Below, piece after piece: positions 18,877 to 20,562 of a DNA stretch of 36,694 bases. The stretch comes from Methanohalobium sp. (GTDB taxonomy: Archaea; Halobacteriota; Methanosarcinia; Methanosarcinales; Methanosarcinaceae). The notes under the pieces were generated by a model. That model made no database searches and was not told where the DNA came from. It was given only the letters and a program-made list of their open reading frames with translations. The stretch spans positions 1 to 36,694 of the forward strand of contig NZ_JAHENT010000086.1 in the NCBI RefSeq assembly GCF_018609725.1, in the 5' to 3' direction. Made by a program: the position numbers and the translations under genes. Each line of letters opens with the position of its first letter. The stretch's first letter is position 1.

Positions 18877-19824
18877 ATGAATTATTATCTGGACCTGTTC
18901 GTCCGAGTTCTTGATTTTGCAGTACCTGTACTTGTAATGATATTTATAGGAATATTTGGTAGTGGGATGCTTATTGAAAAGGGACTAATGCAAAAATTAT
19001 CTCGTTTTGCAAGCCCCATATTCAAGTACACCTATCTTCCAGAAACCTGTGCCTCATCATTTCTGGTAGCTCTCGGTTCTTCAGTTGCTGCAAATACCAT
19101 GATTGTCAAACGCCAAGACGATGGATGCTTGAACAGAAGAGAAGTATTACTCTGTTCTCTCATGAATAGTACTCCCGCATACATCAGGTCGATTTTTACC
19201 TATCAGATACCCATAATGCTACCTGCACTTGGTGTCGTAGTTGGAAGTTTTTATGCTTTTGTATTTATCATAACATCAATAATAAAAATTATAGTCGTCG
19301 TGGTTGCAAGTAGGTTATTTCTTGTAGAAAACCCTTGCAAGGTTTCTGAAACTCCTGAAACCGAAAAAGTATCTCTGAAAACCGCTTTATGGAGGTCTTT
19401 AAAAAGAGAGAAAAAATTGTTCTTAAAAATTGCAGTTATTTATTTGTTCATGACCACTCTTGTGTTTGTACTCAGAGACCAAGGAGCATTTGAAGTTTTT
19501 AGCGTTTTACCTCTTGCCGAGATTTTTGGACTGCCATCTGAGAGTATAGTACCTCTGACATCTTATATAGCAAGCCCAATACTGGGTGCATCCATTCTTG
19601 GACCCATGATACACAGCGGAAGTATATCATATCTGCAGGCGATGATTGTTCTTATGGTAGGGAGTATGTTTATGCTACCACTACTTGGTATAAAAAATAT
19701 GGCTCCAAGATATGTTTCTATTTTTGGGTTCCGTCTTGGTCTGGGTATAGTTACCCTGTCAATGTCAATCAGTGTGATGATAAGATTTATTCTTCTTCTT
19801 ATATTACTGGCAATTGCAGGGTGA
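18877..19824 (+). CDS. Nucleoside-recognition (Gate) domain membrane protein
   Basis: Polytopic membrane protein of 315 residues with about eight spans, belonging to the Gate/nucleoside-recognition family (the SpmA/SpmB group). Segments such as GIFGSGMLIEKG, FLVALGSSVAANTM and the second half TSYIASPILGASILGP are typical of the family's paired hydrophobic gates. Function in archaea is unknown; transport of a small metabolite is inference. No clear ribosome site precedes the ATG, and an AT-rich stretch about 30 bases upstream allows a leaderless start. The stop codon overlaps the end of a decayed insertion element. Confidence 0.8.
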   Translation: MNYYLDLFVRVLDFAVPVLVMIFIGIFGSGMLIEKGLMQKLSRFASPIFKYTYLPETCASSFLVALGSSVAANTMIVKRQDDGCLNRREVLLCSLMNSTPAYIRSIFTYQIPIMLPALGVVVGSFYAFVFIITSIIKIIVVVVASRLFLVENPCKVSETPETEKVSLKTALWRSLKREKKLFLKIAVIYLFMTTLVFVLRDQGAFEVFSVLPLAEIFGLPSESIVPLTSYIASPILGASILGPMIHSGSISYLQAMIVLMVGSMFMLPLLGIKNMAPRYVSIFGFRLGLGIVTLSMSISVMIRFILLLILLAIAG

Positions 19825-19828
19825 ACTA

Positions 19829-19931
19829 CCACTTGGCTAAAAACCAAGTGGCTTCAGAAGGAGTTTACTTCGAAGAGTCTTACTCTTTAAATCAAAGATT
19901 TAAAGATATTTGTAAATTTTCAATTTACAAA
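19829..19931 (-). ncRNA. Array of perfect hairpins after tnpB, possible omega/reRNA remnant
   Basis: Three strong hairpins follow one another: CCACTTGG/CCAAGTGG (19829-19851, 7-nt loop), TCTTTAAATC/GATTTAAAGA (19884-19906, 3-nt loop) and a 10-bp stem TTTGTAAATT/AATTTACAAA (19909-19931, 3-nt loop). A fourth, AAGAGT/ACTCTT (19873-19887), overlaps the second and would compete with it. TnpB elements make a structured guide RNA from exactly this 3' region of the element, so I infer a remnant of that RNA. The evidence is position and structure only. Confidence 0.4.
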
Positions 19932-19965
19932 GTCCTTCTTGGATGGTTCACACACCCACTATCGG

Positions 19966-20484
19966 TTACCCTGTAAAGGAATCACCGACTACTTTTCTTA
20001 ATATGTTCAATGCTCCATTAACATCGGCGTTAAGCAGTTTACCAGTAGAAGATTGAAACAATCCTCTCTTGACTCTTTTACCCATGTATTTTTCATGTTT
20101 TTCTATGGGTTTTAATGCAAGAGCATCGGTTTTACTGGTATATGCCTCATCAACTTCTATGCAATTGATACCGTGGTATTCACATTTAGACCGAAGTTTT
20201 TGCTTGAATTTGCCAAAAGGTATAGTCTGAAAGGTCTGGTTGTTCTTTTTACCCATGTTGGAATTCTGTTTAATGTCTTCCAGTTCTCCGATTATGATGT
20301 TGCCGATTTTATAAACTATACAGTGTTTAATGATATAATTAACACTCTGGTTCATGAAATCATTAATCTTGTTCTTCCTTTTCTCGAACAACCAGTTCAG
20401 TTTCTGACCTGATTTTATATCCTGTTTATCATATACAGATTGCAATCTGCTTTTGACTTTGTTCCACCAACGGTTATAAGAAAT
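19966..20484 (-). pseudogene. tnpB: TnpB (OrfB) transposon nuclease, C-terminal fragment
   Basis: Remnant of an RNA-guided TnpB nuclease. About 172 residues remain, from SYNRWWNKVKSRL to the natural end. It keeps the RuvC-II strand with the Glu of IIIGELEDIKQ and the RuvC-III Asp of NADVNGALNI, but the N-terminal domain and the RuvC-I Asp are gone. An in-frame stop precedes the fragment, and the first ATG-like codon is a TTG that aligns inside the family, so it is not an independent gene. The usual CxxC zinc pairs are replaced by EAYTSKTDAL...KPIEKHEKYMGKR, as in one TnpB subgroup. Confidence 0.88.
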
Positions 20485-20562
20485 CTACAATTTGATGCGA
20501 TGCTAAAGACATCGAGGTTTTTACACATCAGTTATTACAAAAAATTAATATAAAAATAGTTG

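What the first reader, a model, noticed from the sequence alone, without database searches (positions are those of the whole stretch)
19829..20484. Orphan TnpB relic that keeps a strongly folded 3' region
The 5' half of tnpB is gone but three perfect hairpins and one competing hairpin remain just past its stop. In intact elements this zone yields the guide RNA of the TnpB nuclease. Perfect stems next to a decayed coding region may mean that the RNA part is recent, is still mobilised in trans by an intact copy, or has been kept for another use.
Basis: partly seen in the sequence, partly recalled or inferred. Interest (0 to 1): 0.5.

Follow-up and report, generated by a model that had tools for sequence, protein, structure and literature searches.

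The report
Mobile double hairpin in TnpB relic
The leftover transposon in this methane-making archaeon is a young, ordinary deletion product, but two of its perfect hairpins form one 50-letter DNA unit that seems to move on its own and has settled in guide-RNA regions, transposon ends and transposase genes of one archaeal family.

Summary
Window 19821-20536 is an IS605-like tnpB element that lost about 763 bp internally; its right end folds far better than shuffles. It is not a decayed gene beside a preserved RNA: the remaining 504 coding nt are open with 6 private changes, and related genome G001 has the empty site. The truncation is young, so perfect stems need no selection.

The surprise lies elsewhere. 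Two of the three perfect hairpins (19883-19932) are one 50-nt unit: N-[10 bp, 3-nt loop]-2 nt-[10 bp, 3-nt loop]-N. Sister copies lack exactly these 50 nt. It is identical in 10 of 14 other copies that have it, while in five divergent copies tested the rest of the right end and the coding differ by 22-29%; that rest diverges as fast as coding. Variants with other arms interrupt the right end of a distant zinc-ribbon TnpB, a left-end hairpin, a tnpB gene, an IS5 transposase gene (empty copies found) and each other. Strong hits are confined to Methanosarcinaceae. Ten capped paper searches showed no description.

Best reading: a tiny mobile double-hairpin element, like REP dimers or fungal mitochondrial double-hairpin elements, colonising TnpB guide-RNA scaffolds. 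How it moves is unknown.

The parts
19821..20536 (-). Whole internally deleted element (716 bp), right end at 19821, left end at 20536
   Evidence: Copies in the genome end at 19821; empty site in G001 lacks 19821-20538 apart from 2 nt; left-end boundary from aligned left ends
19821..19965 (-). Right end (RE), presumed omega RNA scaffold of intact relatives
   Evidence: transcription not testable here
19829..19851 (-). Terminal hairpin of the RE, presumed TnpA recognition hairpin
   Evidence: shared by family A and C elements; TnpA binding is inference
19856..19939 (-). Region closed by stem AGAAGGA/TCCTTCT; encloses the 50-nt unit and a small hairpin
   Evidence: 4 of its 7 pairs change on both sides among short REs
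19883..19932 (-). 50-nt double-hairpin unit, absent from short REs, inferred to be mobile
19966..20481 (-). Remaining 3' part of tnpB
20481..20482 (.). Deletion junction; about 763 bp missing compared with copy C45
   Evidence: window matches C45 element 63-618, then 1382-1435
20482..20536 (-). Left-end (LE) remnant: most of the LE double-hairpin unit and the outer 5' arm of the LE hairpin are gone
20498..20514 (-). Core of the LE hairpin, CGATG-CTAAAGA-CATCG
   Evidence: sequence; TnpA binding is inference
20537..20541 (-). TAM position, TTTGT on the tnpB strand; TTTAT in all ten other left ends printed
18877..19824 (+). Gate-domain gene whose stop codon (19822-19824) is now supplied by the element

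Best explanation
The feature is a recent internal-deletion derivative of an IS605-like tnpB element in an archaeon inferred to be one of the Methanosarcinaceae. Its folded 3' region is the ordinary right end (presumed omega RNA scaffold plus TnpA hairpin) into which a separate 50-nt double-hairpin unit has been inserted. The unit belongs to a family of probably mobile, non-autonomous palindromic units that enter junctions, stems and loops of transposon ends, and sometimes coding sequence, with a net gain of 50-51 nt and at most one nucleotide of ambiguous target duplication. Because the unit copies and the truncation are young, the stems are perfect without selection on this copy. Shown: anatomy, forms with and without the unit, identity of the unit in diverged copies, confinement of strong hits to one family. 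Inferred: mobility as such, a route through folded single-stranded DNA, transcription of the scaffold as omega RNA, and that intact relatives carrying the unit still work.
For: Short and long right ends differ by exactly 50 nt in A1 (145 and 95), A2 (136 and 86) and the distant family C (130 and 80). Unit identical in 10 of 14 other copies, one change in the other 4; in five A2 copies 0 of 50 differences against 21-27 of 94 in the rest of the RE. Long and short copies interspersed in both clades of a 22-row tree, weakly supported. IS5 transposase gene: three uninterrupted copies (L238, L267, L239) and one with a 51-nt gain (L240). tnpB coding insertion in four copies; joined flanks align in one frame over 58 aa at 53% with uninterrupted TnpB L088. 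Left-end hairpin with (A1) and without (A2: L021, L093, L099) a unit; nested units L182, L155, L165. Information 1.11 bit per column inside, 0.20 and 0.21 in flanks. Empty site in G001. Few private changes.
Against: No event of movement was observed. A1 and A2 carry the unit at the same scaffold site, which points to descent, or exchange of right ends by recombination (L064 has A1 coding with an A2-type terminal hairpin), rather than two hops. Within A1 the unit is not clearly slower than its surroundings (unit against rest of RE p 0.66 and 0.083 in the two pairs tested). Units were first found by a hairpin scan, so their perfect pairing is partly by construction. Most contexts seen lie beside or inside insertion sequences. 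No enzyme is assigned.
Confidence: 0.72

Rival explanations
1. The double hairpin is an old functional domain of the guide RNA, kept by purifying selection for TnpB, and lost by deletion in the short copies.
For: Same scaffold site in A1 and A2; identity over 50 nt despite 26-29% coding divergence; it adds two arms inside the multiloop and leaves the closing stem and terminal hairpin in place; one intact 422-aa TnpB coexists with it.
Against: Intact TnpBs also go with short REs (C45, 390 aligned residues without a stop); the rest of the same scaffold is not more conserved than coding; the same geometry occurs in left ends, in coding sequence and nested in itself; selection for structure would allow sequence change, yet the sequence is frozen.
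Confidence: 0.13
2. The unit does not move by itself; it spread between family A copies only by recombination or gene conversion of right ends.
For: L064 is a right-end chimera; A1 and A2 share the insertion site.
Against: Does not explain the 51-nt gain in an IS5 transposase gene, the tnpB coding insertion, family C, the left-end hairpin or nesting.
Confidence: 0.12
3. The relic is retained as a trans-acting guide RNA or other RNA gene.
For: Strong predicted fold; intact TnpB genes elsewhere in the genome.
Against: Too few private changes to show retention; its guide position holds its own flank, the 3' end of the neighbouring gene; variant TAM. No expression data.
Confidence: 0.05
4. The hairpins are chance AT-rich palindromes or a transcription terminator between two convergent genes.
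For: The element lies between genes that converge.
Against: No chance hit in 3.67 Mb of simulated sequence; the unit recurs at many unlinked sites. A terminator side effect here is not excluded.
Confidence: 0.02

Closest known systems
IS605-type elements of the IS200/IS605 family (tnpB with guide RNA at the right end)
   Same: tnpB domains, subterminal hairpins with a CTTTAG-like loop at both ends, TAM-like flank, no target duplication at the G001 empty site
   Different: This copy lacks the N-terminal 57% of TnpB and part of its left-end hairpin; its right end carries the extra 50-nt unit
REP, BIME and REPIN palindromes of bacteria (GTAG and CGTC families)
   Same: Short stem-loops, often dimers, some 1-2 bp apart, sometimes inside palindromes or inside genes (passages of PMC3733652)
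   Different: No GTAG or CGTC tag at the stem foot, fixed 10-3-10 geometry twice, archaeal, in guide-RNA scaffolds; no dedicated transposase found
Double-hairpin elements of fungal mitochondrial DNA
   Same: Two adjacent hairpins that behave as one insertable block (general picture recalled; papers seen only as search listings)
   Different: Archaeal chromosomes and a plasmid, inside transposons; no sequence comparison was made
Palindrome-associated transposable elements (PATEs) and other tnpB-less IS200/IS605 derivatives
   Same: L026 and L043 are left end plus right end without tnpB
   Different: The 50-nt unit itself carries neither end signal; the term was seen only in a search listing

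Membership tests
IS200/IS605 family element (the relic) | tnpB (OrfB_IS605 / TNB domains) | tested here: met
   TNB over cut-off, OrfB_IS605 partial and below cut-off; full-length relatives
IS200/IS605 family element (the relic) | Subterminal hairpins at both ends, insertion after a fixed motif, no target duplication | tested here: met
   TTTAT before ten of ten other left ends printed, TTTGT here
IS200/IS605 family element (the relic) | Y1 transposase TnpA available | tested here: met
   Four Y1 matches in the genome, one with a 178-aa frame over the whole domain, three partial; that it acts on family A is inference
Active RNA-guided TnpB nuclease (the relic) | Complete RuvC catalytic triad and N-terminal part | tested here: not met
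   Residues 1-222 of the 390-residue query absent; motif names recalled
Omega RNA | Structured RNA overlapping the tnpB 3' end and RE, with support from covariation | tested here: inconclusive
   12 short REs, 9 distinct: 97.1% of cells paired, 7 of 27 pairs change on both sides (13 of 500 shuffles reach 7), further pair types no more than shuffles (452 of 500), outer helix never varies
Omega RNA | Transcribed and bound by TnpB | not testable with these tools
   No expression data; no Rfam family at gathering score
REP / REPIN (the 50-nt unit) | GTAG or CGTC tetranucleotide at the foot of the stem | tested here: not met
   Unit edges in 17 contexts show neither as a shared tag; tag definition from abstract and passages of PMC3733652
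REP / REPIN (the 50-nt unit) | Associated RAYT transposase gene | not tested
   Only the general Y1 family was searched
Mobile double-hairpin element (the 50-nt unit) | Two adjacent hairpins present or absent as one block at homologous sites | tested here: met
Mobile double-hairpin element (the 50-nt unit) | Shared ancestry with the organelle elements of that name | not tested
   No organelle sequence was compared

The most novel reading that the evidence does not exclude
Methanosarcinaceae carry a mobile element of only 50 nt, two hairpins of fixed geometry whose arm sequences turn over while pairing is kept, which moves as folded single-stranded DNA into other palindromes and thereby rebuilds the guide-RNA scaffolds of at least two distant TnpB lineages by inserting ready-made stems.
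Probability: 0.45. Interest if true: 0.75.

Novelty: new variant of a known kind. Interest (0 to 1): 0.57.

Why it matters
If true, TnpB guide-RNA scaffolds can grow by capturing a mobile hairpin module, a natural experiment on where these scaffolds tolerate extra stems. It would also be one of the smallest candidate mobile elements in archaea, with filled and empty sites at nucleotide resolution, so the question of what moves bare hairpin pairs becomes testable. For the finding as given, it replaces 'the RNA of a dead gene was kept' with a simpler history.

Tried and rejected
Rfam at gathering thresholds: no match in the window. Stems kept by selection on this copy: rejected, too few private changes to tell. 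The 50 nt as a lost ancestral guide-RNA domain: weakened by its other sites, not excluded. Empty site for the unit beside a tRNA-Pro gene in G070 (L194): only the tRNA side matched in the five other genomes searched (G008, G021, G032, G062, G085), so no answer. Insertion in an IS1634-like transposase gene (L210): inferred from reading frames only (family name by eye), no empty copy sought. The alignment row L241 lay in reverse orientation and was not used. No structure prediction was run.

Limits of counts. One search compares 28 copies that I chose; truncated or degraded ones (for example L092, L100, L101, L028, L029, L032) were left out. Fisher tests used five of the eight A2 copies with a complete unit and two A1 copies; copies are not independent. 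In one search the 17 contexts include one hit that looks mis-registered (L155:2014) and two pairs of the same site type (L001 with L098, L079 with L138), so about 14 are independent. Searches count both strands, score only the best candidates and print capped lists. In one search one of 16 genomes with a match, G039, lies outside the family (four matches, best E 3.4e-4); I did not read these one by one. sought the left-end type of unit, not the window's own sequence. Paper searches list at most 8-20 of the papers found, and the library lacks most subscription journals.

Full report
What was given. The stems are there, and minus strand 19815-19970 folds with z -5.1 against 200 dinucleotide shuffles.

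What the relic is. Copies elsewhere in the genome fix its right end (RE) at 19821. A full-length relative, C45, matches 19821-19882 and 19933-20481 and then, after a gap of about 763 bp, the left end (LE). The orthologous locus in G001 is empty: flanks match up to 19820 and again from 20539 at about 95% identity with 2 nt between. So an element inserted here, or was precisely lost from G001, and then lost its middle. The insertion fell in the last codons of a Gate-domain gene: GGC TAA in G001, GGG TGA in the window, so the protein keeps its length and the transposon supplies the stop codon. All ten other left ends printed are preceded by TTTATAA on the tnpB strand; the window has TTTGTAA. The deletion also removed the outer 5' arm of the LE hairpin. 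The copy is therefore probably immobile (inference).

How old it is. Against ten relatives the remaining 504 coding nt carry 6 changes private to the window, 1 synonymous and 5 not; differences from C45 are 22 synonymous and 11 non-synonymous. The shared history was under protein selection and the private one is short. The RE has one private change against 15 copies, outside the unit described next. With so few changes, perfect stems say nothing about selection on this copy.

The 50-nt unit. Short REs lack a block of exactly 50 nt: 145 against 95 nt to the same inner anchor in subfamily A1, 136 against 86 in A2 (subfamily names are mine). The block is 19883-19932: one base, a 10-bp stem with a 3-nt loop, two bases, a second 10-bp stem with a 3-nt loop, one base. 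Two of the three 'perfect hairpins' are thus one insertion; the third is the RE terminal hairpin. Of 28 other copies compared, 14 carry the complete unit: 10 identical, 4 with one difference. In five A2 copies tested (L093, L096, L097, L099, L019) the unit has 0 of 50 differences from the window, the rest of the RE 21-27 of 94, and coding 26-29%; unit against rest p 2.6e-6 to 8.7e-5, rest against coding p 0.37-0.61 (pairs not independent). Within A1 the contrast is weak: p 0.66 and 0.083 in the two pairs tested. Unit-bearing and unit-free copies are interspersed in both clades of a 22-row tree, in which 5 of 19 inner branches are well supported.

The scaffold. Twelve short REs (9 distinct) pair in 97.1% of cells with 7 of 27 pairs changed on both sides; 13 of 500 shuffles reach 7, and the outer helix never varies. 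This is moderate support for a conserved structure.

Elsewhere. The same geometry with other arm sequences occurs in five further settings. (a) The RE of family C, whose 375-aa TnpB has four zinc-ribbon cysteines, belongs to the same Pfam families and is not detectably alike to family A by BLASTP (E 0.065), yet shares the terminal 33-35 nt of the RE at 95-100%; short in L113, long in L120, net 50 nt. (b) The 5' arm of the A1 LE hairpin, uninterrupted in A2 copies L021, L093 and L099. (c) Units nested in the hairpins of other units, three deep in L165. (d) The coding sequence of a tnpB on three contigs of this genome and in G001; the joined flanks align in one frame with an uninterrupted TnpB, 58 aa at 53%, though that gene has other lesions. 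(e) An IS5-type transposase gene (family name by eye) in G062, against three uninterrupted copies in G008 and G021; net 51 nt. At site (d) the G001 copy differs from the others at two positions in each arm of hairpin 2 and keeps the stem, in a dead gene. Eleven chosen units show 14 of 20 pairs with changes on both sides, partly by construction since a hairpin scan chose them. Over 17 contexts, about 14 independent, information is 1.11 bits per column inside and 0.20 and 0.21 in the flanks.

Distribution. A covariance model gives 101 and 72 matches at E 1, both strands counted, in this genome and G001. Of 79 relatives (this genome included) 16 have matches at E 0.001, 15 of them in the same family. 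Of 199 genomes of the class 17 have matches at 1e-5, all in the family. A pattern for the LE-type unit in one genome of each of 84,980 species gives 25 stretches, all titled Methanohalophilus, Methanolobus, Methanococcoides or Methanosarcinaceae archaeon. That the window is one of the Methanosarcinaceae is inferred from this and from its FpoO neighbour; G001 as Methanohalobium evestigatum is recalled from replicon size.

Mechanism. Insertions gain 50 or 51 nt with at most one ambiguous duplicated nucleotide and often lie in hairpin stems, loops or junctions. That fits capture of folded single-stranded DNA, by a Y1 enzyme in trans or by template switching during replication; neither was tested. 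In predicted folds the unit adds two arms inside the closing stem and leaves that stem and the terminal hairpin in place. One complete TnpB frame of 422 aa in G001 coexists with an identical unit; its stop codon (1604-1606 of L096) lies within the unit (1562-1611). A guide RNA that tolerates the unit is plausible, not shown.

Known or not. The relic is an ordinary derivative of the IS200/IS605 family. The unit behaves like REP dimers or mitochondrial double-hairpin elements but lacks the REP tag, and kinship with the organelle elements was not tested. Ten paper searches listed no paper describing it; PMC12558985 and PMC3733652 were seen in passages, the others as listings.

Noticed in passing
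window 19816-19824: The transposon end supplies the stop codon of the Gate-domain gene (TAA in the empty G001 locus, TGA here) without changing the protein's length.
   Followed up: yes
L105 and L106 from 1501; L017 2424; L028 752-801: A different extra segment (GCTTTAC...GTTGCCGAA-like) occupies another place of the RE scaffold in both subfamilies, so the scaffold may take up more than one kind of module.
   Followed up: no
L064 1439-2200: A copy with A1-type coding (46 of 516 differences) but an A2-type terminal hairpin (11 of 62): right ends are exchanged between subfamilies.
   Followed up: partly
L010 1664-1744, L043 2060-2260, L112 166-1535: Distant TnpB lineages A and C share nearly identical element ends, as if one transposase mobilised both.
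   Followed up: partly
L026 402-554: A mini-element of left end fused to a right end with the unit, no tnpB.
   Followed up: partly
L194 1501-1550: A unit between the end of a gene and a tRNA-Pro gene in G070, with no insertion sequence recognised by eye; no empty site found.
   Followed up: partly
L154 about 1980-2030, L079 79-128, L080 79-128, L179: tnpB copies with a unit inside the coding sequence are present on three contigs of this genome and in G001, so the broken form seems to have been copied.
   Followed up: partly
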